From contig NZ_BONO01000019.1 of the NCBI RefSeq assembly GCF_016862755.1, positions 1-64,000 on the forward strand: a stretch of DNA of 64,000 nt. The letters are read 5' to 3'. The stretch is from Cellulomonas pakistanensis. Its GTDB lineage: Bacteria > Actinomycetota > Actinomycetes > Actinomycetales > Cellulomonadaceae. How positions within the stretch are numbered: the first letter of the stretch is position 1; every line of letters starts with the position of its first letter. Made by a program: the position numbers and the translations under genes. Of this stretch, positions 15,625-60,209 are shown piece after piece. A model generated the notes under the pieces. It did not search any database and was not told where the DNA came from. It was given only the letters and a program-made list of their open reading frames with translations.

Positions 15625-15697
15625 GCCGAGTGGGCAGCGGACACGTCGAGCGGGCATCCCCTGGTTGCCCGCTCGACGCGTCGCGTGCCCACTCGGC
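15625..15697. repeat. Intergenic palindromic repeat, copy A (divergent)
   Basis: Arms of 32 bp, 28 positions matching, with a 9-base loop TCCCCTGGT. The left arm holds GGACACGTCGAGCGGGCA, close to the GACACGTCGAG core of copies B and C, but the outer GTGCAC block is replaced by GTGGGCA. It lies 30 bp after the exonuclease stop codon. Confidence 0.75.
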
Positions 15698-15723
15698 ACG
15701 CGCCGCGTCGCCGGCGCACGCGA

Positions 15724-15756
15724 GAGGGGGGTCACCGCCCCCCGGTGACCCCCCTC
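15724..15756. terminator. Bidirectional terminator between convergent genes
   Basis: GAGGGGGGTCACCG and its exact complement flank a five-base C loop. It serves the convergent exonuclease and subtilase genes. The rest of the 284-bp gap holds palindrome copy A and GC-rich sequence in which I see nothing else. Confidence 0.75.
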
Positions 15757-15879
15757 GCGGCGCGGCCGGTCCTGGATCTCCCCGGCCCGTCCGCGCCGCC
15801 CTCCCGCGCGGGGTGCGGTCCGGCCGGGGCGGGCGACCCCCGCGCCCGCCCCGCCGTGCCGCACCCGCGCGTGCGCGCC

Positions 15880-18800
15880 TCAGCGCACCTTCAGCACCCC
15901 CACGGTGAGCGTCGGGGTGTAGCCGCCGTCGCCGGTGTACAGCGCGGTGACCGTGGTGGTCCGGCTGACCTTCGGCAGGGTCACCGTCGCCGAGCCGTCG
16001 GTCAGCGGCACGGTCGCGACGGGCCGGACGCCCGCCAGCACCGTGATCTTGCCGCCGGCGGTCGGGGCGCCCTCGGGACCCGCGACCGTGACGGTCACCG
16101 CGGGCGTCGCGCCGCGGGAGACCGTCCAGGACGGGGTGTCGAGCGTGATCGTCGGGAACGTCGCCAGCACGCGGTAGGCCCGCTGGGTCTGCGAGCCGTC
16201 GACGTCCGCGCTGCCCGTGTACACCGCGGTGAGGGTGTGCGACCCGGCCTTCAGGTCGCGGGGCAGGGCGATCGTCGCGGTCGCCTGCGTGCCGGTGCCG
16301 GGCGCGAGCTCGCCGGTCGCGAGGACGGTGCCGCGCTCCCGGATCTCGACGGTGCCGGCCGGGACCGCGCCCTGGCCGGTGACGGTCACGGTCGCGCTCG
16401 CCTCGGAGCCGTACCGGCCCGAGTTCTGCGACAGCGTGACCTTCGTGGTCGAGCCGGCCTTCGCCACGTCCACCGTGACCGGCGCCGACTCGGACCCGGC
16501 GAACGCCGCGCTGTCCGGGGTGAACACCGCCGTCAGCGCGTGCGACCCGCCGCCCAGCCGGACCGTCGCGGTGGCCGTCCCGCCGGCGACCGGGGCCGTG
16601 GCGACCTCGGTGCCGTCCACGCGGAACGACACGGTGCCGGTGGCCTCCGCCGGGTCGACGGTCGCCGTGAGCGTGAGGTCCTTCCCGACCTTCGCCGGGC
16701 CGCGCACCTCCAGCGCGGTGGTCGTCGGCGCGGCCGCGGGCACGGCGACGTCGAGCACCTGGGCCCGGGTCGTCGGGTCGGCGTTGTGGCTGTGCAGGAC
16801 CAGCAGCTGCTCGGCGGGCGCCGCCGTCGTGGTCGACCGGTGCACGGTGAGCTCGGTGGCGTCGGACGCCGCGAACCACAGCGCGTCGGTCACGCCGCCG
16901 TCGAACCAGTAGGGCGGGTCGAACGGGTCGACCGTGAACGCGTCGGCCGCGTCGACCTGGCCGCCCGGGTCGGCGGCGTAGTCCGAGAACGTCCACACCG
17001 TCGCCGTCGGGGTGGCGCCGGGCTCGAGGCCCAGCGCGCCGATCCCGACCGGCGCGACCAGCACCGAGCTGTCGAACACCGTGGTGTCGACGTCGCCGAA
17101 CGCGCCGTTCACGCCCTGCACGTCCAGGGTGTCGCCGGTCTCGTAGTCGAACGTCGCGGCCACCGTGACGTCGGCGGCGTCGCTCAGCTTCTGCACCACG
17201 GTCTGCGCGTCGGTCGCCCCGTCGCCGTCGACGTCCCAGTCGATGACCGGGAGCACGGCCTGGCCGAGCGTGGCCCAGTCGCCGTCGACCGCGATGCCGA
17301 CGCCGAGGTACCCGTCGGCCGGGTCGCCGCCCGCGGCGGCCTGCTGCGGGGCGGTGGACGTCCAGCCGACCCAGCGCAGGTCGCCGGACGCCACCGCGGA
17401 CTCCGAGGTGACGAACCCGGGGACGTCCTCGAGCTTCGGGCTCGTGGCGCCGAGGGTCAGCGGCGCGACCAGCGACGTCCAGCCGCCGGAGTCGACGCCC
17501 CGGCCCGACAGGGTCAGCGCGGCGGTCTCCGCGCCGGCGTCCGCGAACGACACCGGGTCGGCGGTGAGCTCGGAGACGAGGCGCGGCGCGGCCTGCACCG
17601 GGACGCGGAGCTCGTCGGAGCCCGAGGTCAGCACCAGCCGGCCGGACAGCGACGCCACGTACTCGCGCGGCACGCCGCCCTGGGTGGTGGCCTGCGTCGG
17701 GTCGATCTCGCGCTCGAGGGTCGCCGGGTCGGCGGTGAGCGTCAGCGTGACCAGCCCCTGCCGGCCCGCGGGCACGGTCAGCGTCGCGGGGGAGGTGGTG
17801 ATGGTTGTTGCACCGGTGGTGGTCGACGCGGCGAACGCCGTGCCGTAGGTGACGTCCTCGGTGCCGGTGTTGTGCACCGTGACCGTCTTCTTCAGCGTGA
17901 CCGGCTCGTCCGCCACGTCCACGACGCCGAAGGTCACGGACACCTGGTCCGGGTCCTCCGACCCGTACGCGAGCACGGTGTCGGCGACCGCGGCGCGGGC
18001 GTCGACGCGGCCGGAGCCGACCCGCTGCGGGCCGTACGCGGTGCCGGACTGGTTCGCGCCGGTCCAGATGTCGTGCGTCGCGGTGTTCATCACCGCGGCC
18101 TTGACCTGCGCGGGCGTCCAGCCGGGCTGCGTGGCGCGGACCAGGGCCGCGATGCCGGCGACGTGCGGCGCGGACATCGAGGTGCCGGAGAGCGACTGGG
18201 CCGCGGTGCCGGTGCCGGACGCCGCCGAGAAGATCAGCGTGCCGGGCGCGGCCACGTCGGGCTTGATGATCCCGAGCGAGCCGTGCGCCCCGCGGGACGA
18301 GCCCGGGTTCAGGGCGTCGCCGATCTCGTCCGACGTGACCGAGGCGGCGAGCGACGGGCCGAGGTGCGCGACGACCCCGCCGGCCTGGATGGCGGGCAGC
18401 AGCGCGTCGGTCGACGAGGCGGTGAGCTGCGCGCCGGGGATGGTCGCGTTGCCGGCGATGCCCGCGGCGAACACGGTCGACTCGGTGCCGATCAGCACGC
18501 CGGCCGCGCCCGCGGCCTCGGCGTTGTTCCACCGCGCGCCGGAGCCGCACGCCCGGGTCGCGTCGTCGTCGTCCCACCACAGGTAGGCGATGTTCCCGGC
18601 GAGCCGGTCGGCGTACTCGGTGAGCGGGGCGCAGCCGTCCACGTTGTCGCCCAGGTACACCACGGGGGCGGTCACGTCCGCGGTGCCCGCGTAGGAGATG
18701 GAGTTCTGCGCGGACCAGGTGCCGACGAGCGCCGGGTCGGGCGCCTCGGTGACCTCGACGCCGTCGTAGGTCTGCGGGCTGCCGACCGAGTTGGCGACGG

Positions 18801-20079
18801 TGAGGCCCGACGCCGCGGAGCCGGGGGAGCCGCCGACGTCCGTGATGTCGGCGGAGTTGCCCGCGGACAGCACGGCGAGCGTCCCGAGGTCGGACAGCCG
18901 GTCGATGAGCAGGTTGTCCGGGTCGTCGGACGGGGTGGCCGAGGCGCCGAGCGACAGGTTGACCACGTCGAGGTGGTCGCCGAAGTCGCCGTCGCCGTCG
19001 GGGTCGGCCGCCCAGTCGAGCGCCACGCCGGTCAGGTCGGTGGACCCGCCGATGTCGCCGAACACCTTGAGCGCGTAGACGCCGGCCTCCGGTGCGGAGC
19101 CCGGGCCGACCTCCCAGTCCGTCAGGTCGGTCAGCGTGCCGTAGTCGCCGGTGAACGTCGTGCCGTCGGGCTGCACGCCGTAGCCGGCGGCGGTGCCGGC
19201 GACGTGGGTGCCGTGGCCGGAGTTGTCCGACGTGTACAGGCTGTCGATCGGGTTGGCGTCCGGCGTCGGCGTGAGCGTGGCGCCGGGCAGCTCGGAGGCG
19301 GGGTCGGCGTCGTACAGCGGGCCGGCGAAGTCGTAGCCGCCCAGGTACTTGGCCGGGTCGTACAGGCCCTCGGGGACGGGCTGCGTGCCGTCCTCCCCGT
19401 AGGCCTGCTGGTACGCCTCGACGGTGCCCGGGCCGCCGAACGCGGCGTGGGTGTAGTCGAGACCGGTGTCGATGACGCCGATCCGGACGCCCTCGCCCGT
19501 CTGGCCCGTGTCCTGCCACACCTGCAGCGCGCGCGTGAACGCGTCGGTGGAGGAGTTGTCGGCGGTCTTGGTGGTCACCCGGTACACCGCGACGACGCTG
19601 TCGGAGGTGGCGAGCTCCCGGACCTGCGCCGCGTCGCCGGTGACGAGCGCGCCCGAGACGAGGTTGGACAGGGTGGCGATGCGCTCCGGCGCCACGGCGG
19701 CCGTGCGGGCGGCGGGGTCGGCCTCGGCGGGGACGACCGCCTCGGCGACCTGCTCGACCTGCGCGGTCGCCTCCTGGACCGCGGCCGCGTCGCCGCCGTC
19801 CTCCGCGACGTCGAGGCCGGACGGGGCGTCCAGCTGCACGAACGCGGTCACGGTGCCCTCGGCGTCGGCCAGGCCCGAGGAGACCTTGCCCTCGGTGCCG
19901 GCGAGGACGTCGTCCGAGGCGACCGGGTCGCCCGCGCCGGCCGTCAGCCCGGGGTCGAGGGGGAGGGGCGGTGACGCGGCACCCGGCCCCGCGGCGGACG
20001 CGGTGGCGCCCGCTCCGAGAGTGGTGGTGGCGGCCAGCGCCAGGACGGTCAACGAGGCACGGAGCGGGCGACGCGTCAT
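15880..20079 (-). CDS. Secreted subtilisin-like serine protease (S8) with Ig-like repeats
   Basis: A 1399-residue exported protease. A Sec signal peptide of about 30 residues ends near ASA. An inhibitor-type propeptide follows, then the S8 domain with Asp204 (GVIDTGLD), His289 (SGHGTHVAG) and Ser634 (SGTSMSAPHVAG). A protease-associated domain containing WWDDDDATRACG sits between His and Ser. A long beta-rich region comes next, and at least three bacterial Ig-like repeats, each with a TATVRLGGGSHALTAVF-like strand, end the protein. No LPxTG or membrane anchor is visible, so it is probably released. The ATG at 20079 gives the only good signal peptide; its Shine-Dalgarno is weak. Confidence 0.93.
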   Translation of the reverse strand: MTRRPLRASLTVLALAATTTLGAGATASAAGPGAASPPLPLDPGLTAGAGDPVASDDVLAGTEGKVSSGLADAEGTVTAFVQLDAPSGLDVAEDGGDAAAVQEATAQVEQVAEAVVPAEADPAARTAAVAPERIATLSNLVSGALVTGDAAQVRELATSDSVVAVYRVTTKTADNSSTDAFTRALQVWQDTGQTGEGVRIGVIDTGLDYTHAAFGGPGTVEAYQQAYGEDGTQPVPEGLYDPAKYLGGYDFAGPLYDADPASELPGATLTPTPDANPIDSLYTSDNSGHGTHVAGTAAGYGVQPDGTTFTGDYGTLTDLTDWEVGPGSAPEAGVYALKVFGDIGGSTDLTGVALDWAADPDGDGDFGDHLDVVNLSLGASATPSDDPDNLLIDRLSDLGTLAVLSAGNSADITDVGGSPGSAASGLTVANSVGSPQTYDGVEVTEAPDPALVGTWSAQNSISYAGTADVTAPVVYLGDNVDGCAPLTEYADRLAGNIAYLWWDDDDATRACGSGARWNNAEAAGAAGVLIGTESTVFAAGIAGNATIPGAQLTASSTDALLPAIQAGGVVAHLGPSLAASVTSDEIGDALNPGSSRGAHGSLGIIKPDVAAPGTLIFSAASGTGTAAQSLSGTSMSAPHVAGIAALVRATQPGWTPAQVKAAVMNTATHDIWTGANQSGTAYGPQRVGSGRVDARAAVADTVLAYGSEDPDQVSVTFGVVDVADEPVTLKKTVTVHNTGTEDVTYGTAFAASTTTGATTITTSPATLTVPAGRQGLVTLTLTADPATLEREIDPTQATTQGGVPREYVASLSGRLVLTSGSDELRVPVQAAPRLVSELTADPVSFADAGAETAALTLSGRGVDSGGWTSLVAPLTLGATSPKLEDVPGFVTSESAVASGDLRWVGWTSTAPQQAAAGGDPADGYLGVGIAVDGDWATLGQAVLPVIDWDVDGDGATDAQTVVQKLSDAADVTVAATFDYETGDTLDVQGVNGAFGDVDTTVFDSSVLVAPVGIGALGLEPGATPTATVWTFSDYAADPGGQVDAADAFTVDPFDPPYWFDGGVTDALWFAASDATELTVHRSTTTAAPAEQLLVLHSHNADPTTRAQVLDVAVPAAAPTTTALEVRGPAKVGKDLTLTATVDPAEATGTVSFRVDGTEVATAPVAGGTATATVRLGGGSHALTAVFTPDSAAFAGSESAPVTVDVAKAGSTTKVTLSQNSGRYGSEASATVTVTGQGAVPAGTVEIRERGTVLATGELAPGTGTQATATIALPRDLKAGSHTLTAVYTGSADVDGSQTQRAYRVLATFPTITLDTPSWTVSRGATPAVTVTVAGPEGAPTAGGKITVLAGVRPVATVPLTDGSATVTLPKVSRTTTVTALYTGDGGYTPTLTVGVLKVR

Positions 20080-20116
20080 GGGGTTCCGTTCATCGGGCAG
20101 GGGCGGGCGTGCACCG

Positions 20117-20139
20117 CGTCGTGACTTGACGTCACGACG
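20117..20139. promoter_or_regulatory. Palindrome in the subtilase leader
   Basis: CGTCGTGAC, TTGAC, GTCACGACG: 9-bp perfect arms about 40 bases before the protease start and about 20 downstream of its -10. It could be an operator or an mRNA hairpin. Confidence 0.45.
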
Positions 20140-20157
20140 GAGGGTGACTGCCGCCAC

Positions 20158-20186
20158 ACGGTACGCACTTCTGGGCGATTCGTCAC
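20158..20186 (-). promoter_or_regulatory. Promoter of the subtilase gene
   Basis: On the minus strand GTGACG (20181-20186), 17 bases, then TACCGT (20158-20163). This gives an mRNA leader of about 70 bases. Confidence 0.5.
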
Positions 20187-20384
20187 GGTTCCGCCACACA
20201 TTCGTCGCTCAGCGCGCGCACAGGCGTCGCTAGCATGGGTGACCCGGGCCACAGGAGCGGCTGATGACATGCCTGGCCAGGGCGGCAGCCGACGCCGCGC
20301 ACCTGAGGGTGGCGCGTGTGCGGATCTCGTGAAGATCGGGCCCCGGCATCGTCACGGGATCTTCGCGCGCTGGTCGCGCCGTCC

Positions 20385-20415
20385 TTGAACGACCCCGAGG
20401 TCCGCTGCCTAACCT
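20385..20415 (+). promoter_or_regulatory. Promoter of the M15 carboxypeptidase gene
   Basis: TTGAAC (20385-20390), 19 bases, then TAACCT (20410-20415), eight bases before the GTG at 20424. It implies a leaderless message. The rest of the 344-bp gap between the divergent genes holds the subtilase control region and no other signal I can support. Confidence 0.55.
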
Positions 20416-20423
20416 CGACGACC

Positions 20424-22112
20424 GTGAGTGACAGCATGCCCGCCGCGCGGCGCACGTCCCGCGGCCGGCACGCAGCCCCGCGCGACGAGCGCGACCCCGC
20501 GGCCCCGGCCGCCGCGACGACACCCACGCCCGCCTTCCCCGGGGAGGTGGGCGCGGTCGTGCCCACCGGCCGGAACGACGCCCCCGGCACCCCCGCCGGC
20601 CCGAGCGCGTCGCCCGCCCCGTCCCCGATCGAAGGTGCAGCACCCGAGCCCGTGACGTCCTCCACCCCCTCCCCCCGCACGTCCCCCGACACCACGACCC
20701 CCGTCGACCACGCCCCCGTGCGCGCCCGCGGCCGCCGCGCGGCCGGCCCGGCGCAGGACGGCCCCGGCGACCTCCCCGCCCGGCGCGCGTCGGCCCCCTC
20801 CGGCCGTCGTGCCGCCGCGGCCGGCGGCCGCCGCGCCGCCGAGCCGACCGGCGGGCGCGTGTCGCACCGCGCCGACGGCCGCGCCTCGGTGCGCACCCCG
20901 GCCCGCGGCGTCCCGGTCGCGACGCTCGCGTCCGCCGACGCGCCGAACCGCGCCGAGCGACGGCGTCGCCGCGCCCCCCGCCGGTCCGCCGCGCGCATGG
21001 CGCAGGGCGCCGTCGCCGTGGGCCTGGCGCTCGGTGTCGGTGGCTTCGCCATCGCCCCCACGGCCGTCGGTGCGCGGGCGCTCGCGGGCGCCGACGCGGA
21101 GCCGACCGCCTCGCCGAGCCCGGGCGACGCCGCGACCACCGCGGCCCTCGCGCCCGAGGTCGTGCAGGAGCGCGGCGCGGCCGTCGTCCTCGCGGCCACC
21201 ACCGTGCAGGAGGCCGGCGACGCCAAGGCCGACGCCGTCGCCGCCGCCGTGCCGGCCGACGCCACCGCGGCGCTCGACACCGCGGTCGCCGAGCTCGACA
21301 CCCTGATCGCGGCGACCCAGGCCGAGCAGCCCGCGCTGCAGGCCCTGCAGCCGGCCGCGCCCGCCGCGCCGGTGCTCTCCGGCGAGGCCCTCGACCGGGC
21401 GGTCGCCGAGGTCGGCGCGTCCGCGCTGGCGGACGCCGCCGCCGCGGCGGGCGCCGAGTCGGCGTCCGACGACGTCGCCGCGGCGGACCCGTCCGCCGCC
21501 CCGACCGAGCCCACCGGGTCGGCCGCGGACGTCGCCGAGACCCCCGACGACCCCACCGCCGCGCGCCTGACGGCCGCGATGGGCGAGGTCGCCACGCTGA
21601 CCGCCGAGCTGCAGGTCGTCACGCAGCAGGCGCAGGAGGCCCAGGCAGCGGCCGCCGCTGCCGCCGCGGCCGCCGCCGAGGCCGCCCGCAAGGAGGCCCA
21701 GCGGACGTCGCTCGAGGGCTACAGCAACGGCCAGATCCCGTCGTCGGCGCTGTGCGGCCTCGACTTCGCGCCCGGCCAGGAGCTGCGCTGCGACGCGGCC
21801 GAGGCGCTCGAGCAGCTGAACGTCGCGTTCACGCAGGCGTTCGGCACCAACCTGGTCATCACGGACTCCTACCGGTCGTACAGCCAGCAGGTCGCCTGCC
21901 GCGCGCAGAAGGGCAGCCTGTGCGCGACGCCCGGCACGTCGAACCACGGTGGCGGCGTCGCGATCGACCTGGGCGGCAACGCCTACTCGTTCGGCACCGA
22001 CCAGCACGACTGGATGCTGGCGCACGCCGAGGAGTACGGCTGGACGCTGCCGGAGTGGGCCCGCGCGACCGGCTCGAAGCCGGAGCCGTGGCACTGGGAG
22101 TACGTGGGCTGA
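20424..22112 (+). CDS. M15-family D-alanyl-D-alanine carboxypeptidase (VanY-like)
   Basis: A 562-residue membrane-anchored cell-wall enzyme. A disordered, Pro/Arg-rich cytoplasmic N-terminus of about 190 residues precedes one helix (VAVGLALGVGGFAIAPTAV). An Ala/Glu-rich extracytoplasmic stalk with a coiled-coil-like segment and an 11-residue poly-Ala run follows, then the VanY domain. Zinc ligands His508 and Asp515 (SNHGGGVAIDLGG) and His557 (EPWHWEYV) are present. It removes terminal D-Ala from peptidoglycan stems. The start is uncertain: GTG 20424 is favoured by TAACCT eight bases upstream, while an ATG at 20436 and an upstream GTG at 20316 are also in frame. Confidence 0.9.
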   Translation: MSDSMPAARRTSRGRHAAPRDERDPAAPAAATTPTPAFPGEVGAVVPTGRNDAPGTPAGPSASPAPSPIEGAAPEPVTSSTPSPRTSPDTTTPVDHAPVRARGRRAAGPAQDGPGDLPARRASAPSGRRAAAAGGRRAAEPTGGRVSHRADGRASVRTPARGVPVATLASADAPNRAERRRRRAPRRSAARMAQGAVAVGLALGVGGFAIAPTAVGARALAGADAEPTASPSPGDAATTAALAPEVVQERGAAVVLAATTVQEAGDAKADAVAAAVPADATAALDTAVAELDTLIAATQAEQPALQALQPAAPAAPVLSGEALDRAVAEVGASALADAAAAAGAESASDDVAAADPSAAPTEPTGSAADVAETPDDPTAARLTAAMGEVATLTAELQVVTQQAQEAQAAAAAAAAAAAEAARKEAQRTSLEGYSNGQIPSSALCGLDFAPGQELRCDAAEALEQLNVAFTQAFGTNLVITDSYRSYSQQVACRAQKGSLCATPGTSNHGGGVAIDLGGNAYSFGTDQHDWMLAHAEEYGWTLPEWARATGSKPEPWHWEYVG

Positions 22113-22223
22113 CGCCCCCGCGGGCCCCGGAGGGCGCGGCGTGCGTCGGCGGTCGCGGCGTCCTACCGTGAGCAGCGCGGCGGCCGCCCGGCCGTCGAGC
22201 CACCCCTCGTGAGGAGCCCCGAC

Positions 22224-22664
22224 ATGCCCACTCGCACCGCCCGCACCGCCTGGAACGGCACCCTGAACGAGGGCGGCGGCCAGGTGGAGCTCACCAGCTC
22301 GAAGGTCGGCACCTACGACGTGTCGTTCCCGAAGCGCGCGGCCGACGAGGCCGGCGGCACCACGAGCCCCGAGGAGCTCATCGCGGCGGCGCACTCGTCC
22401 TGCTACGCGATGCAGCTCTCGGCCCTGATCGGCGAGGCGGGCGGCACGCCCGAGTCCCTCGAGGTCACCGCCGACGTGACGCTCGGCCCGGACTCCGCGG
22501 GCGGCTTCCGGATCAGCGGCATCGCGTTGACGGTCCGCGCCGAGGTCTCCGGCCTGGACGAGGCCGGCTTCCTCAAGGCCGCCGACGACGCCAAGGCGAC
22601 CTGCCCGGTCAGCAAGGCGCTCACCGGCACGGAGATCACGCTGGACGCGGCGCTCGAGTCCTGA
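22224..22664 (+). CDS. osmC: OsmC-family peroxiredoxin
   Basis: A 146-residue organic hydroperoxide reductase of the OsmC subfamily. It follows E. coli OsmC closely along its length, for example TTSPEELIAAAHSSC and the C-terminal EITLDAALES. The two redox cysteines are Cys60 (AHSSCYAMQL) and Cys127 (ATCPVSKAL). Cytoplasmic, with the dimeric fold expected. GAGGAG lies before the ATG; an in-frame upstream ATG-less extension is not supported. The 111 bp upstream hold no other signal I can see. A terminator follows. OsmC versus Ohr is decided by the CPVSKAL motif. Confidence 0.93.
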   Translation: MPTRTARTAWNGTLNEGGGQVELTSSKVGTYDVSFPKRAADEAGGTTSPEELIAAAHSSCYAMQLSALIGEAGGTPESLEVTADVTLGPDSAGGFRISGIALTVRAEVSGLDEAGFLKAADDAKATCPVSKALTGTEITLDAALES

Positions 22665-22676
22665 GCCGCGCCACCC

Positions 22677-22717
22677 CGACGCCCCCGGTCCCGCCCCTCG
22701 GCGGGCCGGGGGCGTCG
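22677..22717 (+). terminator. Terminator after osmC
   Basis: CGACGCCCCCGG and its complement, with an inner CCCGCC/GGCGGG extension and a CCTC loop, starting 12 bases after the stop codon. Confidence 0.75.
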
Positions 22718-22786
22718 TCGCGTCCGGGGGCGCGCGTCGCGGCGTCCGGGCCTCGGACGCGGGGGCACCCACCCCCGGCGCGGTGG

Positions 22787-22792
22787 AACACT
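22787..22792 (+). promoter_or_regulatory. -10-like element, leaderless start of the YdiJ-like gene
   Basis: AACACT ends six bases before the GTG at 22799, and no Shine-Dalgarno is visible. Confidence 0.4.
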
Positions 22793-22798
22793 GGCGCC

Positions 22799-27161: not shown

Positions 27162-27200
27162 GCGCAGGCCCGTACCCCCTGGTGGGGTGCGGGCCTGCGC
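27162..27200 (+). terminator. Terminator between rplL and rpoB
   Basis: Arms of 17 bp (GCGCAGGCCCGTACCCC and partner, one G-T wobble) with a CTGGT loop. It separates rplJL from rpoBC, which then needs its own promoter. Confidence 0.75.
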
Positions 27201-27223
27201 CGTGCGCGGGGCCGCCCGCGCGA

Positions 27224-27286
27224 GGGTGCACGAGACACGTCGAGCGTGCCGTCGCTGAGGGCACCCTCGACGTGTCTCGTGCACCC
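27224..27286. repeat. Intergenic palindromic repeat, copy B
   Basis: Arms of 27 bp differing at one position, loop GTCGCTGAG. Each arm reads GGGTGCAC, then GAGACACGTCGAG, then a GTGCC end. It stands 24 bp beyond the rplL terminator and about 150 bp before the rpoB promoter. Confidence 0.9.
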
Positions 27287-27437
27287 CCGTGGTGGCCCGC
27301 GGCGGCGCGCGGAATGCGCGCGGGGGAGGGGGTGTTGCAGATCCGTGGAGGCACGACGGCGTGCCCCGGTTCGGACCGCGCAGGCCCGGCGCGCCGCTCG
27401 CCCACCAGGTGTGGCGCACGCCCCATACCACGAGCGC

Positions 27438-39902: not shown

Positions 39903-39940
39903 CAGCAGGGCCCGGGTGCTTCGGCACCCGGGCCCTGCTG
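39903..39940 (+). terminator. UUCG-loop terminator after tuf
   Basis: CAGCAGGGCCCGGGTGC, TTCG, and the exact complement: a 17-bp perfect stem capped by a stable UUCG tetraloop, 27 bases after the tuf stop. Confidence 0.9.
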
Positions 39941-39966: not shown

Positions 39967-40027
39967 GGTGCACGGGACACGTCGAGGGTGCCCACACTGA
40001 GGGCACTCTCGACGTGTCTCGTGCACC
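39967..40027. repeat. Intergenic palindromic repeat, copy C
   Basis: Arms of 27 bp with two mismatches, loop ACACTGA. The arms contain GGTGCACGGGACACGTCGAG followed by GGTGCCC. It starts 27 bp after the tuf terminator and stands just upstream of the AbiEi-like gene, which has copy D at its other end. Confidence 0.9.
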
Positions 40028-40099
40028 CTGGCAAGGACGCGGGCAACTGGGCCTGTGGACAACCGGTCCGACCACCCTCTCGCGCGGGAGGGTGGGTGC

Positions 40100-41017
40100 G
40101 TGGACGGCGACGTGCAGGTGCTGACGGCGGAGGACGAGGCGCGGACCGGGCTGTCGGGTGCGGATCTGCGCGATGCGCGCGACTCCGGGTCGCTCGTGCG
40201 CGTCCGGTACGGGGCCTACGCCGACGCGGACGGGTGGGCGGCGTTGGACGCCGACGGTCGCTACCGGGCCCTGGTGGTCGCCGCGTCCCGGAGGATGCGG
40301 GACGCGGTCTTCAGCCACGCGTCCGCAGCCGCCCTGTGGCGCCTCCCGCGCCTGGGCGCTTGGCCGCAGGGCGTCGAGGTGCTGGTCGGCGCGTCGTCGA
40401 CGGTGCGGTCGTCCCGCGGCGTGGTCCGGCACCGGACGGCACGTCCGCCTGCCGTCGCGCTCCGGGACGGCGTGCGCGTGACGGCGGCCGCGCGGACCGT
40501 GCTCGACCTGGCCCGCCGGGACCGGTTCGCGGCGGCGCTCGTGGCCGCGGACCACGCGCTGCGCACCGGCGTGGCCACCCCGGACGAGCTGCGGTGCGAG
40601 TCGGAGGCCGCCGGGGGTGAGCCCGGCGTGCGTCGCGCCCGTCGGGTCGTCGCGGAGGCGCGCGCCGAGGCGGAGTCGCCGGGGGAGTCGCTGAGCCGCG
40701 CCCGCATGATCGAGCTCGGGGTGCCGCGACCGGTCCTGCAGCACGAGCTCCGCGACGGCGACGGTCTTGTCGCGCGGGTCGACTTCTGGTGGGCGGACCT
40801 CGGTCTCGTCGGCGAGTTCGACGGTCGCCTGAAGTACCGGACGGACGGCGTGGCCGACCGCCGTGCCGTCGAGGAGCGGCTGTGGGCCGAGAAGCAGCGC
40901 GAGGACAGGGTGCGCGCGCTGGGTCGGCGGGTGGTCCGGTGGACCTGGGCGGACGCCCTGGACGCGAACCACCTCGCGACCCGCCTCACCACGGCGGGCC
41001 TGCGCCCGGCACGGTGA
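40100..41017 (+). CDS. AbiEi-like / DUF559-type nuclease-fold protein
   Basis: A 305-residue protein of two parts. The N-terminal third ([25 protein letters not shown], then [13 protein letters not shown]) resembles the winged-helix AbiEi antitoxin-like domain found in many actinobacterial proteins. The C-terminal part has [20 protein letters not shown] (Asp228, Glu239, Lys245), a PD-(D/E)XK pattern as in DUF559/Vsr-like nucleases, and ends [12 protein letters not shown]. No toxin gene is adjacent. The GTG at 40100 has GGGAGGG upstream; a GTG at 40055 is in frame. The gene lies between two near-identical palindromes inside the tuf-rpsJ gap. Its cellular role is unknown. Confidence 0.8.
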
Positions 41018-41024: not shown

Positions 41025-41084
41025 GGTGCACGATACACGTCGAGGGTGCCCACACGGGGGCACCCTCGACGTGTCTCATGCACC
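41025..41084. repeat. Intergenic palindromic repeat, copy D
   Basis: Arms of 27 bp with two mismatches, six-base loop ACACGG. It fills the gap between the AbiEi-like stop codon (8 bp away) and the convergent symporter stop codon (9 bp away), so it is probably also their shared terminator. Confidence 0.9.
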
Positions 41085-52557: not shown

Positions 52558-52739
52558 TGGCCCGCCTCAAGGTGACCCAGACGAAGTCCGCCATCGGCGG
52601 CAAGCAGAACCAGCGCGACACGCTGCGCACCCTGGGCCTCAAGCGGATCGGCGACGTCGTCGTCAAGGAGGACCGTCCTGAGATCCGCGGCATGGTCAAG
52701 ACGGTGACGCACCTGGTCGCGGTCGAGGAGGTGGAGTGA
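52557..52739 (+). CDS. rpmD: 50S ribosomal protein L30
   Basis: A 60-residue protein (E. coli 59) with [25 protein letters not shown] and [20 protein letters not shown]. It overlaps the rpsE stop by one base and precedes rplO by two bases, so translation of the three is coupled. Confidence 0.97.
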
Positions 52740-52741
52740 CG

Positions 52742-53437: not shown

Positions 53438-53445
53438 CTCCCTGA

Positions 53446-53495
53446 CGAACGGGGTCGGCGAGGGCTCCACGCCCCGCCGGCCCCGTTCGGCTTTT
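53446..53495 (+). terminator. Intrinsic terminator after rplO
   Basis: CGAACGGGGTCGGCG and CGCCGGCCCCGTTCG (one G-T wobble) followed closely by CTTTT. It is one of the few terminators here with a T-run. It separates the ribosomal genes from secY. Confidence 0.85.
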
Positions 53496-53591
53496 CCGGG
53501 GGACCGGGACCGACCGCCGCGTCGGACTCGTCCCCCACGCGCCCCCGCCGCACGGCCGCGGGGCGATGCCCACCCTGCGGCGGAAGTCCGT

Positions 53592-53597
53592 TAGGGT
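53592..53597 (+). promoter_or_regulatory. Probable -10 of the secY operon
   Basis: TAGGGT lies about 105 bases before the secY start and beyond the rplO terminator. No clear -35 is visible. A GC-rich untranslated leader fills the rest of the 266-bp gap. Confidence 0.45.
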
Positions 53598-53703
53598 TCG
53601 GCAGGGCGTCGGGCGCTCCGAGCGCCCGGCCGACGGCGGACCGGCGCGCGAGAACCCGGCCGGTCACCACTCGACATCCCGCTTCGGCGGAGCAGGAGGA
53701 CAC

Positions 53704-54999
53704 GTGCTCAGCGCATTCGTGCGGGCGTTCAGGACACCCGACCTGCGGCGCAAGCTGCTGTTCACCGTCGGGATCATGGTGGTCTTCCGGGTCGGCTCGT
53801 TCCTGCCGACGCCGGGCGTGTCCTACCCGAACGTGCAGATCTGCATCGACCAGACCGAGTCCAACTCGCTGCTGGGCCTGGTGAACCTGTTCAGCGGCGG
53901 TGCGCTGCTGCAGCTGTCGGTGTTCGCGCTCGGGATCATGCCCTACATCACCGCGAGCATCATCATCCAGCTGCTGCGCGTGGTGATCCCGCGGTTCGAG
54001 GCCCTGCACAAGGAGGGCCAGTCCGGCACCGCGAAGCTCACGCAGTACACGCGGTACCTGACGATCGGCCTCGCGGTCCTGCAGTCGACGACCGTCATCA
54101 TCACGGCCCGCAACGGCCAGCTGTTCCCGGGCTGCGGCGTCGACGTGATCCCGGACGGCAGCATCACGACGACGCTGCTCATGATCATCACGATGACCGC
54201 GGGCACCGGGCTCATCATGTGGCTGGGCGAGCTCATCACCGAGCGCGGCGTCGGCAACGGCATGTCGCTGCTGATCTTCACCTCGATCGCCGCGTCCTTC
54301 CCGGGCGCCATGTGGTCGATCGCGGGCGGCTCCGGCGGCATCGGCGCGTTCCTCGTCGTCATGGCGATCATCGTCCTGGTGATCGCGCTGGTCGTCTTCG
54401 TCGAGCAGTCCCAGCGCCGGATCCCGGTGCAGTACGCCAAGCGCATGGTCGGCCGCCGCACCTACGGCGGGTCCTCGACCTACATCCCGATCAAGATCAA
54501 CATGGCCGGCGTCATCCCGGTGATCTTCGCGTCCTCGCTGCTGCAGGTCCCCGCGCTGCTCGCCGGCTTCGGCGACCAGACGGCCGGCTGGCGCGTGTGG
54601 GTCGCGAACAACCTCGCCGACCCGGGCGCCCCGCTGCACATCGCGCTGTACGTCGTGCTGATCATCTTCTTCTGCTACTTCTACACGGCGATCACGTTCA
54701 ACCCGGACGAGGTCGCGGACAACATGAAGCGGTACGGCGGGTTCATCCCCGGCATCCGCGCCGGCCGCCCGACGGCCGAGTACCTGGACTACGTGATCAC
54801 CCGCATCACCGCGCCCGGGTCCATCTACCTCGCGCTGGTCGCGCTGATCCCGACGATCGCCTTCATCGTCCTGGGCGTCGGCACGAACATCCCGTTCGGC
54901 GGCTCGTCGATCCTCATCGTCGTGGGCGTCGGCCTCGAGACGGTGAAGCAGATCCAGTCGCAGCTCGAGCAGCGCCACTACGAAGGGTTCCTCCGATGA
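53704..54999 (+). CDS. secY: Preprotein translocase subunit SecY
   Basis: A 431-residue protein with ten membrane helices forming the Sec channel (E. coli 443). It begins AFVRAFRTPDLRRKLLFTVGI and has the plug-region NLFSGGALLQLSVFALGIMPYITASIIIQLL in segments, and the cytoplasmic loop QRRIPVQYAKRMVGRR that contacts SecA and the ribosome. AGGAGGA lies before the GTG. The stop overlaps the adk start (ATGA). Confidence 0.98.
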   Translation: MLSAFVRAFRTPDLRRKLLFTVGIMVVFRVGSFLPTPGVSYPNVQICIDQTESNSLLGLVNLFSGGALLQLSVFALGIMPYITASIIIQLLRVVIPRFEALHKEGQSGTAKLTQYTRYLTIGLAVLQSTTVIITARNGQLFPGCGVDVIPDGSITTTLLMIITMTAGTGLIMWLGELITERGVGNGMSLLIFTSIAASFPGAMWSIAGGSGGIGAFLVVMAIIVLVIALVVFVEQSQRRIPVQYAKRMVGRRTYGGSSTYIPIKINMAGVIPVIFASSLLQVPALLAGFGDQTAGWRVWVANNLADPGAPLHIALYVVLIIFFCYFYTAITFNPDEVADNMKRYGGFIPGIRAGRPTAEYLDYVITRITAPGSIYLALVALIPTIAFIVLGVGTNIPFGGSSILIVVGVGLETVKQIQSQLEQRHYEGFLR

Positions 55000-55592
55000 G
55001 CTCCGCCTCCGGCTCCACCGCCCGTCTCGTCCTGCTGGGTCCCCCCGGGGCCGGCAAGGGCACCCAGGCCGCGCGCCTGGCCGAGCGGCTCGGCGTCCCG
55101 GCGATCTCGACCGGCGACATCTTCCGCGCCAACATCAAGGGCGGCACCGAGCTCGGCCGCACCGCGCAGGAGTACACGGCGCGCGGCGAGCTCGTCCCGG
55201 ACGAGGTCACCAACGCGATGGTGCGCGACCGGCTCGCGCAGCCGGACGCCGCGCAGGGCTTCCTGCTCGACGGCTACCCGCGCAACGTCGCCCAGGTCGG
55301 CGAGCTCGACGCGATCCTCACGGACGCCGGCCGCGCCCTGGACGCCGCGCTGGAGATCACGGCCGACGCGGACGTCGTCGTCGAGCGGCTGCTGAAGCGC
55401 GCCGAGATCGAGGGCCGCGCGGACGACACCGAGCCGGTGATCCGCCGCCGGCTGGACGTCTACGCGGAGCAGACGGCGCCCATCTCGGGCGTCTACGCCG
55501 AGCGCGGCCTGCTGGTGCGGGTCGACGGGATCGGCGAGGTCGACGAGGTGACCGAGCGCCTGCTCGGGGCCCTGGCCTCGCAGGTCGGCTGA
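54996..55592 (+). CDS. adk: Adenylate kinase, short (LID-less) form
   Basis: A 198-residue enzyme interconverting ATP, AMP and ADP. It has the P-loop LLGPPGAGKGTQ, STGDIFR and the AMP-site FLLDGYPRN. The zinc or LID insertion of the 214-residue E. coli enzyme is absent (KRAEIEGRADDTEPVIRRRL runs straight through), as in other actinobacteria. It overlaps secY by four bases and is followed by map after 14 bp. Confidence 0.97.
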   Translation: MSSASGSTARLVLLGPPGAGKGTQAARLAERLGVPAISTGDIFRANIKGGTELGRTAQEYTARGELVPDEVTNAMVRDRLAQPDAAQGFLLDGYPRNVAQVGELDAILTDAGRALDAALEITADADVVVERLLKRAEIEGRADDTEPVIRRRLDVYAEQTAPISGVYAERGLLVRVDGIGEVDEVTERLLGALASQVG

Positions 55593-55606
55593 CCGCGGGG
55601 GTCGTC

Positions 55607-56461
55607 GTGTTCGGACGCGAGAAGATCGAGCTCAAGACGCCGGAGCAGGTGCTGCTCATGCGGCGCGCCGGCCTCGTGGTCGCGGACGCCCTGGCGGCGG
55701 CCCGCGCGGCCGCGGTCCCGGGCGCCACGACGGCGGACCTGGACCGCGCCGCCGCCGCGGTGATCGCCGACGCCGGCGCGCAGCCGTCGTTCCTGGGGTA
55801 CCACGACTACCCGGCGACCATCTGCGTGTCGGTGAACGACGAGGTCGTGCACGGCATCCCGTCGGGCCGGGCCCTCGAGCCCGGCGACGTGGTGTCGATC
55901 GACTGCGGCGCCATCGTCGAGGGCTGGCACGGCGACTCGGCGCTCACCCTGGTGCTGCCCGAGGCCGACCCGGCCGACGTCGCGCTGGCCGAGCTGACCG
56001 AGCGGGCCATGTGGGACGGGATCGCCGCGCTCGCCGGCGAGGGCGGCGGCCTCGCCGACCGGCTCGCGGTGGTGGGCGACGCCGTGGAGGACGCGGTCGC
56101 GGCCACGGACCCGGCTCTGAACGGCGGCGTGCCGTTCGGCATCGTGCAGGACTACGTCGGGCACGGCATCGGCTCCGCCATGCACCAGCCGCCGGACGTG
56201 CTGAACTACCGCTCGCGGGACCGCGGGCCGAAGCTGCGCGCCGGCATGTGCCTGGCCGTCGAGCCGATGATCACCCGCGGCGGTCACGCCACCGAGGTGC
56301 TCGACGACGACTGGACGGTCGTGACGGCGGACGGCGCCCGCGCGGCGCACTGGGAGCACTCGGTCGCGCTGCACGACGGCGGCATCTGGGTGCTCACGGC
56401 CGTGGACGGCGGCGCCGCGGAGCTCGCGGCGCGCGGCGTGACGGTGGCGCCGCTCGGCTGA
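55607..56461 (+). CDS. map: Methionine aminopeptidase, type I
   Basis: A 284-residue metalloprotease removing the initiator methionine. The five metal ligands are recognisable: two Asp in [16 protein letters not shown], His in [12 protein letters not shown], Glu in [11 protein letters not shown] and Glu in [10 protein letters not shown]. There is no zinc-finger extension. GTG start after a GC-rich purine stretch; the gene follows adk by 14 bp. Confidence 0.97.
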
Positions 56462-56596
56462 CGCCGCCCGCGCGCGGCGCCGCGCCGGACCCCGTCGCCG
56501 GGGCGCATCCGGGCCGCGGGGAAGAACCCGGCCGCCGGCGGCGTTGACGACGGCGTGCCCGGGGTCGGCGCGTCCGCTTGACGGAGCGCCACCGCG

Positions 56597-56626
56597 TTTC
56601 CTCGCGGGCGCCCGATGGCGTATGAT
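56597..56626 (+). promoter_or_regulatory. Promoter of infA-rpmJ-rpsM-rpsK
   Basis: A near-consensus TATGAT (56621-56626) with a weak TTTCCT 18 bases upstream, about 190 bases before infA. The remainder of the 356-bp gap after map holds GC-rich palindromic sequence (GCGCGGCGCCGCGC near 56470) that may end the secY-adk-map transcript, and an untranslated leader. Confidence 0.6.
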
Positions 56627-56817
56627 TGTCCGTTGGGTGTGCGCCCTCGCGCTGTCGCACGTCCCGTCCGAGCCCGACCGCACCGCGGTCGCGCGCGTAC
56701 GGGCCGCGCACCGGCGGGGACCGGGGCACGCCCACCACGTCCGAACCGCCCGCCGGCACCGCCGGGGGACGCGAGGGCGCGGAGATCGGCAGTTCAGGAC
56801 AAGAGTTAGCGGAGGAC

Positions 56818-57039
56818 ATGGCGAAGAAGGACGGTGTCATCGAGATCGAGGGCAGCGTGATCGAGGCTCTCCCGAACGCGATGTTCCGCGTGGAGCTGAG
56901 CAACGGTCACAAGGTGCTCGCCCACATCTCGGGCAAGATGCGCCAGCACTACATCCGGATCCTCCCGGAGGACCGGGTGGTGGTCGAGCTGAGCCCGTAC
57001 GACCTGTCCCGCGGGCGCATCGTCTACCGCTACAAGTAA
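56818..57039 (+). CDS. infA: Translation initiation factor IF-1
   Basis: A 73-residue OB-fold protein (E. coli 72) that occupies the A site during initiation. It starts [20 protein letters not shown] and ends [10 protein letters not shown], nearly invariant among bacteria. GGAGGA lies before the ATG. Confidence 0.98.
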
Positions 57040-57113
57040 CCGACCGAACGAGCATCGCCGTCGGTCTGCTCCCCGAGAGGGGCCAGGCACATTCGGCGGC
57101 GGAGGAACAGGCC

Positions 57114-57227
57114 ATGAAGGTCAAGCCCAGCGTCAAGAAGATCTGCGACAAGTGCAAGGTGATCCGCCGGCACGGTCGCGTCCAGGTGATCTGCGAGAAC
57201 CTGCGCCACAAGCAGCGCCAGGGCTGA
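57114..57227 (+). CDS. rpmJ: 50S ribosomal protein L36, zinc-binding
   Basis: A 37-residue protein of the C+ type: [19 protein letters not shown] with a later Cys and His, the zinc ligands. GGAGGAA lies before the ATG. It stands 74 bp after infA, in the usual order infA-rpmJ-rpsM-rpsK. Confidence 0.98.
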
Positions 57228-57427
57228 GTGCCCTGCCGCTCGGGACGCACCTGAGCAGCACACCCGCCGGACCCTGAGGGGCCGGCACCAGCGCATCGCC
57301 GAACCGGCAGCGCACCCGCACCGCGGGTCGCGACCGGTGAACCCCCGGCTCGGAGGCCGGGGCCCGCAGACCCGCGGGAGGACGGTGCGGCAGACCTCCG
57401 ATCGAAGTCCAAGGAGCCGAAAGGCAC

Positions 57428-57808
57428 ATGGCACGTCTTGTCGGCGTCGACCTCCCCCGCGAGAAGCGGCTCGAGATCGCGCTCACCTACATCTACGGCG
57501 TCGGCCGTACCCGCGCCCAGCAGACGCTGGCCGCGACCGGCATCAGCCCGGACCTCCGCGTGAAGGACCTGGACGACTCCCAGCTCGTCACCCTCCGCGA
57601 CTACCTCGAGGGCAACTTCAAGCTCGAGGGTGACCTCCGCCGCGAGGTCGCCGCTGACATCCGCCGCAAGGTCGAGATCGGCAGCTACGAGGGCCTGCGT
57701 CACCGCCGCGGCCTCCCGGTGCGCGGTCAGCGCACCAAGACCAACGCGCGTACCCGCAAGGGCCCGAAGCGCACCGTCGCCGGCAAGAAGAAGGCCGGCC
57801 GGAAGTAA
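57428..57808 (+). CDS. rpsM: 30S ribosomal protein S13
   Basis: A 126-residue head protein (E. coli 118) contacting P-site tRNA and S19. It begins [20 protein letters not shown], has [24 protein letters not shown] in parts, and a basic KKKAGRK tail. A 200-bp GC-rich spacer with small hairpins (for example CCCCGGC/GCCGGGG near 57345) separates it from rpmJ. Confidence 0.98.
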
Positions 57809-57904
57809 CCCGCCCGCGGCCCGCCGGGCCTGTCGCACGACGACAGCCGCCCGCGCCGCGACGGGGCACCGACCTCACGACCAGCAGCGAGAGAGAACGA
57901 GCAG

Positions 57905-58306
57905 ATGCCTCCGAAGACCCGCAGTTCCGTGCGCAAGCCGCGCCGCAAGGAGAAGAAGAACGTCTCCCACGGCCAGGCGCACATCAAGAGCACGTTCAAC
58001 AACACCATCATCTCGATCACGGACCCCAGCGGCGCCGTGATCTCCTGGGCGTCGGGCGGCGACGTGGGCTTCAAGGGCTCGCGCAAGTCGACCCCGTACG
58101 CCGCGGGCATGGCCGCCGAGGCCGCTGCGCGCAAGGCCGCCGAGCACGGCATGAAGAAGGTCGACGTCTTCGTCAAGGGCCCGGGCTCCGGTCGTGAGAC
58201 CGCGATCCGCTCCCTGACCGCGGCCGGCCTCGAGGTCGGCTCGATCCAGGACGTGACGCCCCAGGCCCACAACGGCTGCCGTCCGCCGAAGCGCCGCCGC
58301 GTCTGA
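57905..58306 (+). CDS. rpsK: 30S ribosomal protein S11
   Basis: A 133-residue platform protein (E. coli 129). It has [20 protein letters not shown] and the C-terminal [19 protein letters not shown] strong hairpin 12 bases after the stop suggests that most transcripts end here; rpsD, which often follows, is absent. Confidence 0.98.
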
Positions 58307-58318
58307 CCCCTAGCCGGG

Positions 58319-58356
58319 CCGCCGCGGGCGGGGGAGCGATCCCCCGCCCGCGGCGG
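58319..58356 (+). terminator. GCGA-loop hairpin between rpsK and rpoA
   Basis: A perfect 17-bp stem (CCGCCGCGGGCGGGGGA and complement) capped by a GCGA tetraloop of the GNRA class. It splits the alpha operon and implies a separate promoter for rpoA-rplQ. TCATAT at 58417 is a weak candidate -10. Confidence 0.8.
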
Positions 58357-58451
58357 TGCCGGCCGGTCGCGCGGGTGGACCGAGACCCGCGTCGCCCTGC
58401 GAGTACCTGCGCTGCGTCATATGGCGGACGCACGCTGAGAGGAACCCCGAA

Positions 58452-59462
58452 GTGCTCATCGCACAGCGCCCCACCCTGACCGAAGAGGTCATCTCGGAGT
58501 ACCGCTCGCGGTTCTCCATCGAGCCGCTCGAGCCGGGCTTCGGCTACACGCTCGGCAACTCCCTGCGCCGGACCCTGCTGTCGTCCATCCCGGGCGCCGC
58601 CGTGACGAGCATCCGGATCGACGGCGTGCTGCACGAGTTCAGCACGGTGCCGGGCGTCAAGGAGGACGTCACCGAGATCATCCTCAACATCAAGAACCTC
58701 GTCGTCTCCTCGGAGAACGACGAGCCCGTCGTGATGTACCTGCGCAAGCAGGGTGCGGGTGACGTGACCGCCGCCGACATCGTCCCGCCGGCCGGCGTGG
58801 AGGTCCACAACACGGACCTGCACCTCGCGACGCTGAACGAGAAGGGCAAGCTCGAGATCGAGCTGACCGTCGAGCGTGGCCGCGGCTACGTGTCGGCGAA
58901 CCAGAACAAGTCGTTCGAGGCCGAGATCGGCCGCATCCCGGTCGACTCGATCTACTCGCCGGTCCTCAAGGTGACCTACAAGGTCGAGGCGACCCGCGTC
59001 GAGCAGCGCACCGACTTCGACAAGCTGATCGTCGACGTCGAGACCAAGCCGGCGATCAGCCCGCGCGACGCCCTGGCGTCCGCCGGCAAGACGCTGGTGG
59101 AGCTGTTCGGCCTCGCCCGCGAGCTGAACGTCGAGGCCGAGGGCATCGAGATCGGCCCGTCGCCGACCGACGCGGCCCTGGCCGCCGACCTGGCGCTCCC
59201 GATCGAGGACCTGCAGCTGACCATCCGGTCGTACAACTGCCTCAAGCGCGAGGGCATCCACTCGGTGGGCGAGCTCGTGGCGCGGTCCGAGGCCGACCTG
59301 CTCGACATCCGCAACTTCGGTGCGAAGTCGATCACCGAGGTCAAGGAGAAGCTGGCCGAGCTGAACCTGTCCCTCAAGGACAGCCCGCTCGACTTCGACC
59401 CCACCGCCGCCGCGTACTACGACGGCGACGAGGGCGACTTCACCGAGGACGAGCAGTACTGA
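58452..59462 (+). CDS. rpoA: DNA-directed RNA polymerase subunit alpha
   Basis: A 336-residue subunit (E. coli 329). The N-terminal assembly domain has [25 protein letters not shown]. After a linker, the C-terminal domain that contacts UP elements and activators reads [23 protein letters not shown]. The end is acidic ([15 protein letters not shown]). The GTG at 58452 follows GAGAGGA; the open frame continues upstream through the hairpin but is non-coding there. Confidence 0.98.
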
Positions 59463-59531
59463 TGCCGGGGAGGCCGGCGCGCTCGCGAGCGTGACCGGCC
59501 GGCCCATCACTGGAACCAAGGAGTAAAGACC

Positions 59532-60074
59532 ATGCCTACGCCCACCAAGGGTCCCCGGCTCGGTGGCGGCCCGGCGCACGAGCGGCTGATCCTGGCCAAC
59601 CTGGCCACGGCGCTGTTCGAGCACAAGCGCATCACGACGACCGAGGCCAAGGCGAAGCGCCTGCGCCCGCTCGCCGAGCGCCTGGTGACGTTCGCCAAGC
59701 GCGGCGACCTGCACGCCCGCCGCCGCGTCCTGACCGTCGTCCGCGACAAGTCGGTCGTCCACGAGCTGTTCGTGGAGATCGCCCCGCAGATGGCCGAGCG
59801 CCAGGGTGGCTACACCCGCATCACCAAGATCGGCCCCCGCAAGGGTGACAACGCGCCGATGGCCGTGATCGAGCTCGTGCTCGAGCCCGTCTCGCCGAAG
59901 CAGGCCGTCGTCCGCGAGGCCACCAAGGCCGCGCAGAAGGCGGCTCCGAAGGCCGAGGAGGCTCCCGCCGAGGAGACCACGGTCGAGGAGACCCCCGCCG
60001 AGGGGACCACGGAGGCCACCGACGCCCCCGAGGCCGAGGCCGCCGACACCAAGGACGAGGCCGACAAGGCCTGA
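59532..60074 (+). CDS. rplQ: 50S ribosomal protein L17 with C-terminal extension
   Basis: A 180-residue protein against 127 in E. coli. The normal part ([39 protein letters not shown] in segments) ends near residue 118. A Glu/Ala/Thr-rich acidic tail of about 60 residues follows, the opposite charge to the L15 extension. It lies 69 bp after rpoA and is the last gene of the ribosomal cluster. Confidence 0.97.
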
Positions 60075-60091
60075 CCTGACGTCAGCACCGG

Positions 60092-60135
60092 GAGGGCCCG
60101 GGTCCCGCGAGCACGCTCGCGGGACCCGGGCCCTC
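60092..60135 (+). terminator. Terminator after rplQ
   Basis: A perfect 20-bp stem (GAGGGCCCGGGTCCCGCGAG and complement) with a four-base loop CACG, 17 bases after the stop. It ends the ribosomal cluster. Confidence 0.9.
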
Positions 60136-60147
60136 TCGCGTGCCCCG

Positions 60148-60209
60148 GGGTGCACGAGACACCCCGCGGTGCCCTCCCTGTGGGTACCCCGGAGGTGTTT
60201 CGCGCACCC
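60148..60209. repeat. Intergenic palindromic repeat, copy E (degenerate)
   Basis: Arms of 27-28 bp that still share GGGTGC, CGA and ACACC but have diverged in the inner part (CCCCGCGGTGCCC on the left). It starts 12 bp after the rplQ terminator, the same placement as copies B and C. Confidence 0.65.

What the first reader, a model, noticed from the sequence alone, without database searches (positions are those of the whole stretch)
15625..60209. A family of five long intergenic palindromes sharing a GACACGTCGAG core
Copies lie at 15625-15697, 27224-27286, 39967-40027, 41025-41084 and 60148-60209. B, C and D have 27-bp arms with only one or two mismatches. Their arms read GGTGCACGAGACACGTCGAG (with small changes) followed by GGTGCC(C), and the loops are 6-9 bases. 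A has the core with a different outer block, and E has lost the inner part. Every copy stands 8-30 bp downstream of a stop codon or a separate terminator, never in a gene. Near-identity between copies far apart, with arms kept complementary, suggests a mobile or actively maintained element such as a REP/RAYT-type repeat, or a binding site for a nucleoid or terminator-associated protein. I do not know a named family that fits.
Basis: partly seen in the sequence, partly recalled or inferred. Interest (0 to 1): 0.75.

Follow-up and report, generated by a model that had tools for sequence, protein, structure and literature searches.

The report
Nuclease gene with self-matching palindromic repeats
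The five hairpin-like repeats belong to two families spread through a Cellulomonas genome, each tied to its own nuclease-like gene that is flanked by copies of the same repeat, an arrangement found at many such genes in related bacteria.

Summary
The five palindromes belong to a dispersed group with at least 77 places in this Cellulomonas genome, in two subfamilies: Type I (24; B-E) and Type II (53; A). Type I crowds behind stop codons; Type II does not.

The new finding is a linked gene. C and D bracket window gene 40055-41017, an AbiEi-like DNA-binding module fused to a Vsr/homing-endonuclease-like domain (my label: PAN). Type II brackets a second PAN. Across the order, 59 of 116 high-scoring PAN loci have a long palindrome within 300 bp, 22 on both sides; 162 control genes: 2 and 0. 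Palindrome sequences differ between loci but share a design: 44 of 79 show a module repeated within an arm, always 19 or 20 bp apart. One prediction worked well: the palindrome beside a PAN of another family lies at 22 places in its own genome and none in 13 others; a second case was weaker. RAYT-type transposase is absent from 11 genomes.

I propose a REP/RAYT-like system built on an unrelated nuclease. That PAN drives the spread is inferred, not shown.

The parts
15625..15697 (.). Palindrome A, Type II subfamily (CGAG+key modules around GACACGT, 20 bp apart), between a 5'-3' exonuclease gene and a convergent subtilase gene
27162..27200 (.). Resident terminator-like hairpin behind rplL, present also in relatives that lack palindrome B
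27224..27286 (.). Palindrome B, Type I, in the rplL-rpoB spacer; Type I also in G034, degenerate Type II-like in G027, neither in G009/G037/G040
39903..39940 (+). Resident tuf terminator hairpin, kept in relatives
39967..40027 (.). Palindrome C, Type I, 27-28 bp upstream of the PAN gene
40055..41017 (+). PAN gene (my label: palindrome-associated nuclease), 320 aa: AbiEi-like module (residues about 6-203) fused to a Vsr/I-Bth0305I-like domain (about 208-317)
41025..41084 (.). Palindrome D, Type I, 7 bp behind the PAN stop codon, between convergent genes
60089..60138 (.). 24-bp-arm hairpin behind the ribosomal protein L17 gene, before palindrome E
60148..60209 (.). Palindrome E, diverged Type I

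Best explanation
The palindromes are non-autonomous repeats, each built of four copies of a roughly 9-13 bp module: two in direct order 19-20 bp apart in one arm, mirrored in the other. Each repeat family is paired with its own copy of a PAN gene, whose protein joins an AbiEi-like inverted-repeat-binding module to a Vsr/homing-endonuclease-like domain. I propose that PAN recognises the modules of its own family, nicks or cuts DNA at (possibly extruded) palindromes, and so promotes copying of the palindrome into intergenic sites and its homogenisation, as RAYT is thought to do for REP. Copies just behind stop codons (Type I) may persist because a strong hairpin there is harmless or useful as a transcript end. 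Shown by computation: dispersal, two families, PAN flanking, the module spacing, arm covariation, differences between species at orthologous sites, one clear success of the dispersal prediction in another family. Inferred: binding, cutting, copying, and any effect on transcripts.
Against: 57 of 116 PAN loci have no long palindrome within 300 bp, and the loci were the higher-scoring matches, not a random draw; thresholds were set after a first look, though the same for controls. Some genomes carry PAN without Type I/II repeats (G057, G048). Other PANs of G000 have none (L264, L317). The Type II PAN of G000 has an in-frame stop although Type II is abundant there. The second dispersal test gave only 7 places in G120, with 1 each in G124 and G263. 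Outside the order only 2 of 9 tested palindromes show the arm repeat (both at 19). Spacing 19 or 20 clusters only weakly on the PAN tree (7 changes against 9.5; 23 of 500 shuffles as low). No clear target-site duplication. Two non-PAN genes of G000 are also bracketed. Transposases other than Y1 were not searched. No biochemistry.
Confidence: 0.62

Rival explanations
1. PAN is a regulator only: the palindromes are AbiEi-type operators, and the dispersed copies are a regulon or nucleoid sites, not mobile DNA.
For: AbiEi represses its own promoter through inverted repeats (PMC3985639, passages); many PAN flanks are on the upstream side.
Against: Most copies sit behind genes rather than between divergent promoters: 46 of 53 Type II and 23 of 24 Type I are outside divergent gaps; 15 placed copies in G214 are 11 convergent, 4 tandem, 0 divergent. 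Palindromes occur downstream of PAN too. A conserved nuclease-like domain is not needed for a repressor (inference).
Confidence: 0.14
2. The palindromes are miniature elements moved by some other, unidentified transposase; PAN is a passenger that happens to sit between two copies.
For: Non-autonomous palindromes are often moved in trans; cutting by PAN is not shown; only Y1 transposases were sought.
Against: The association recurs with unrelated palindrome sequences in many genera and predicted a dispersed family.
Confidence: 0.13
3. They are ordinary intrinsic terminators made alike by gene conversion.
For: Type I stands behind stop codons (20 of 24 within 25 bp) and folds strongly.
Against: Type II shows no such preference (13 of 53 against 11.4 expected); resident hairpins already stand at B, C and E; no T-runs at the five window copies; does not explain PAN flanking or the 19/20-bp module spacing.
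Confidence: 0.08

Closest known systems
REP/REPIN with RAYT (TnpA-REP) tyrosine transposase
   Same: Dispersed intergenic palindromes near gene ends, repeat families with their own gene flanked by the same repeats (PMC3733652, passages).
   Different: No Y1 transposase in 11 genomes; about 60-75 nt instead of 20-40; modules 19/20 bp apart; partner is an unrelated AbiEi-Vsr-like fusion.
AbiEi antitoxin (type IV toxin-antitoxin AbiE)
   Different: Fused nuclease-like domain; neighbours of the window PAN are tuf and a symporter gene; repeats are dispersed and mostly lie behind genes.
I-Bth0305I / Vsr-like endonucleases (EDxHD, MTES_1575 REase, DUF559)
   Different: Window PAN is a free-standing gene; coupled to palindromes and an AbiEi module.
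MITEs / TIR-flanked elements
   Same: Short, non-autonomous, inverted-repeat, intergenic.
   Different: No clear target-site duplication at the sites read; no parent insertion sequence identified (only Y1 sought).

Membership tests
REP/RAYT | Genome encodes a Y1 (HUH) RAYT transposase | tested here: not met
   PF01797: 0 of 11 genomes at E<=0.01, control rings in 6 of 14
REP/RAYT | Dispersed intergenic palindromes | tested here: met
   77 places, none in a called gene
REP/RAYT | 20-40 bp unit with GTAG or CGTC tag at one end | tested here: not met
   Window units are 60-73 bp and show no such shared tag by eye; definition from the start of the abstract of PMC3733652
REP/RAYT | Associated gene flanked by the same repeats | tested here: met
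   but the gene is not a RAYT
AbiE type IV toxin-antitoxin | Antitoxin gene next to an AbiEii nucleotidyltransferase toxin gene | tested here: not met
   Window locus only: neighbours are tuf and an SSF symporter; other loci not tested
AbiE type IV toxin-antitoxin | AbiEi fold | tested here: met
Vsr/EDxHD-type homing endonuclease | Catalytic-domain fold | tested here: met
Vsr/EDxHD-type homing endonuclease | Site-specific cutting that spreads the element | not testable with these tools
   needs enzyme assays
MITE | Target-site duplication and parent insertion sequence | tested here: inconclusive
   One clean empty site, no clear duplication; parent sought only as Y1
Intrinsic terminator | G+C-rich hairpin followed by T-run at gene end | tested here: not met
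   hairpin yes, T-run no on either strand for the five window copies; other copies only seen in the listing

The most novel reading that the evidence does not exclude
A second, independently evolved class of gene-plus-dispersed-palindrome system: AbiEi-Vsr-like nucleases across Actinomycetota each recognise and spread their own four-module palindrome, with sequence specificity diverging gene by gene while the 19/20-bp module geometry is kept.
Probability: 0.6. Interest if true: 0.93.

Novelty: categorically new. Interest (0 to 1): 0.86.

Why it matters
REP/RAYT is, as far as I recall, the main case in bacteria where a single-copy domesticated enzyme is tied to many short palindromes. A non-homologous counterpart with a domain of the homing-endonuclease fold would show that this lifestyle arose twice, give a natural library of enzyme-site pairs with a fixed geometry, explain scattered hairpins in actinobacterial genomes, and suggest a function for a common gene family known here only by AbiEi-like and DUF559/MTES_1575-like matches (143 of 198 genomes in the order sample).

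Tried and rejected
RAYT/Y1 transposase: absent. Known RNA family: 0 Rfam matches in the window at gathering score. A family name for PAN: the window protein has no Pfam match at E 0.001 and AbiEi_4 at E 0.016, below its cut-off; NCBIfam gave only weak matches, one member each, which I disregarded; PDB by sequence profile gave none. At first I rejected the gene between C and D as a mere neighbour because repeat-free relatives carry it too; the flank survey overturned this. The 19/20 spacing as a clade marker of PAN: only weak. Literature: searches (open-access PMC holdings) showed no paper that links palindromes to AbiEi/DUF559/Vsr-like genes; I read passages only of PMC3985639, PMC3710099 and PMC3733652 and saw the rest only as listings with the start of the abstract.

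Rows dropped and choices: 30 of 50 homologues came as loci; of these L249 and L260 (interrupted matches) were left out of the 116, while other interrupted genes were kept. Of 29 new loci, L293 (contig end) was left out. The 60 loci were taken from the printed, best-first list. Of 27 new loci, 4 from the same order were left out. 7 proteins with an internal stop were left out of tree and clustering. 4 of 53 Type II copies that paired poorly without gaps were left out of the covariation count, which favours pairing in the observed value. The gene caller is home-made; I judged it by the ribosomal genes it recovered. A loose core scan also picked up in-gene chance matches, left aside by eye. The Type I/II split is a score threshold; a few diverged copies may be misplaced.

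Full report
WHAT WAS CLAIMED AND WHETHER IT IS THERE. The five palindromes exist as described. A covariance model built from them finds 77 distinct places in the 4.0-Mb draft genome (147 strand hits at E<=0.01, only 150 of 3511 candidates scored, so a lower bound). Reading the copies shows two subfamilies. With a gapped-identity threshold, 24 are Type I (GGGTGCACGAGACACGTCGAGGGTGCCC and mirror; B, C, D, E) and 53 Type II (CGAG-key-GACACGT-CGAG-key and mirror; A). One copy, C7:80380, has Type I outer and Type II inner arms. E is the weakest of the five: neither one search's listed 25 nor my scan picks it.

CONTEXT. With a home-made gene caller no place lies in a gene. Type I lies in 13 tandem, 10 convergent and 1 divergent gaps, and 20 of 24 are within 25 bp of a stop codon; random placement in the same gaps gives a mean of 11.8 and a maximum of 18 in 2000 trials. 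Type II lies in 26 tandem, 20 convergent and 7 divergent gaps, 13 of 53 within 25 bp of a stop (mean 11.4, p 0.31). So Type I looks selected for, or targeted to, gene ends; Type II does not. None of the five window stems is followed by a T-run, and B, C and E stand behind resident hairpins.

ARMS. In 49 of 53 Type II copies (4 that paired poorly without gaps left out) the arms covary: 126 cells with changes on both sides against a mean of 64.7 and a maximum of 88 when right arms are swapped between copies. Either pairing is selected or a copying process keeps arms alike.

DISTRIBUTION AND TURNOVER. The core pattern (Type II, and the Type I copies that keep it) with up to 3 mismatches is abundant in 6 of 81 genus genomes (28-56 places each) and at 0-3 in the other 75. 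The Type I outer-arm pattern is found in 2 of 81: G000 (20) and G034 (5). In the orthologous window region site B holds Type I in G000 and G034, a degenerate Type II-like element in G027, and neither in G009, G037 and G040; G048, G114 and G040 carry a third palindrome family in that spacer. At C4:193900 G000 has Type I directly behind the stop, IC4_254 is empty, and DE0111 has Type II further on.

THE LINKED GENE. The window gene between C and D (40055-41017) first looked like a bystander, since relatives without the repeats carry it too. But a survey of 30 homologous loci showed that many are bracketed by palindromes, and that the palindrome family goes with the gene copy: Type I for the tuf-locus gene of G000 and G034; Type II for the second gene of G000, G009, G027, G037 and G106; a variant in G040; other sequences in G057 and G114. 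About a third of the 30 had none. In the G000 stretches 4 genes have an element within 350 bp on both sides; 2 are these homologues.

ORDER-WIDE TEST. The profile finds homologues in 143 of 198 genomes of the order sample, 60 of 72 genera, and in 72 of 296 of the phylum sample. I tested 116 loci: 28 of 30 (the discovery set), 28 of 29, and 60 fetched from the best-first list, so not a random draw. A palindrome of at least 46 nt lies within 300 bp on any side in 59 and on both in 22; 63 share a 14-mer and 39 an 18-mer between the two flanks. Among 162 control genes of 600-1300 nt from 20 fixed 20-kb stretches of 20 genomes the numbers are 2, 0, 1 and 0; among the 41 with gaps of at least 60 bp on both sides, 2, 0, 0 and 0. 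Without the discovery set: 43, 13, 47 and 29 of 88; other genera alone 39, 12, 42 and 27 of 80; one locus per 50%-identity cluster of intact proteins 26, 7, 31 and 17 of 55. Outside the order: 8 of 23 any, 2 both; 400 random 900-bp windows 5 and 0; background 10 such palindromes in 787 kb of random stretches. Thresholds were chosen after a first look and applied alike to controls.

DESIGN. Of 79 flanking palindromes of at least 52 nt (median 68), 44 contain a direct repeat of at least 8 of 9 bases within an arm, 29 at offset 19 and 15 at offset 20, none at the other 15 offsets tried; one shuffled arm gives 0.98 in total, so at most about 2 for the two arms scanned. No labelled locus (36) has conflicting offsets, among them 8 with both sides called. 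The five window copies peak at 20, 20, 20, 20 and 19. Outside the order 2 of 9 palindromes show the repeat, both at 19. Module sequences differ widely between loci, so the geometry is what is kept. On the PAN tree the two spacings cluster only weakly.

PREDICTION TESTED. If flanking palindromes seed families, the palindrome beside the PAN of G214 (another family of the order) should be dispersed in G214. It was: 37 arm matches at 22 places, two of them the PAN flanks; 0 in 13 other genomes; control 0. Of 30 loci read, 15 separate palindromes could be placed (the two PAN flanks among them): 11 convergent, 4 tandem, 0 divergent, 0 in genes; 4 loci had no palindrome passing my threshold at that spot, and 11 repeated places already counted. 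The second family tried was weaker: 7 places in G120 (two are PAN flanks), 1 each in G124 and G263, 0 in 7 others. No further family was tested.

MECHANISM. Proposed: the AbiEi-like part reads the modules, the Vsr-like part nicks or cuts, and repair or a hairpin intermediate copies the palindrome to a new gap or over an older one. Only association, geometry, dispersal and differences between species are shown. Against: half of PAN loci lack palindromes; the Type II family persists in G000 with an interrupted gene; no clear target duplication; other transposases were not excluded.

KNOWN KINDS. It works like REP/RAYT but fails membership: no Y1 transposase, different size and tag. It is not an AbiE pair in the window. 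I found no paper that describes it (open-access holdings, mostly seen as listings). PAN is my label. I call it categorically new because no component is homologous to REP/RAYT; a reader who files by function may prefer 'new variant'.

Noticed in passing
window ~27200-27400 and ~41029 in G048, G114, G040 (L281, L284, L285, L286): A third palindromic family (TTCGGAGGCTCC / ATCGTGGTG-CTCCGCGGA-CCACCACGAT) stands in the spacer of site B (G048, G114, G040) and near site D (G114) where G000 has Type I.
   Followed up: partly
window ~15636 in G027 (L274) and G009 (L269): A different palindrome (CCACCCGATTCTCGCG...) stands in G027 at the site where G000 has palindrome A; G009 seems to have a degenerate form.
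   Followed up: no
window 7895-7947: Perfect 24-bp-arm hairpin with a 5-nt loop, unrelated to the family.
   Followed up: no
L250 / G000:C3:210538-211431: The Type II-bracketed PAN of G000 carries an in-frame TAG near its N-terminus although Type II repeats are abundant.
   Followed up: partly
L035:2727-3398 and L070:2575-2925: Two non-PAN genes of G000 (223 and 116 aa) are also bracketed by palindromes of the family.
   Followed up: no
L472 (G381): A random control stretch holds two long palindromes of one family (GGATGTGAAAACACCC / GGATGCGGAATCACCC), perhaps another dispersed family.
   Followed up: no
L276:14139-14207 (G034): One palindrome with module CGAGGTCGTCACA in 39 kb of G034; a PAN of G114 (L258) is bracketed by similar ones. 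Whether it is dispersed in G034 was not tested.
   Followed up: no
L103:5098-5154 and L076:3715-3770: A 57-bp palindrome CGAGTGGAYGRTCYGGCC...GACACGCC shared by ACRRI and G000.
   Followed up: no
   Followed up: no
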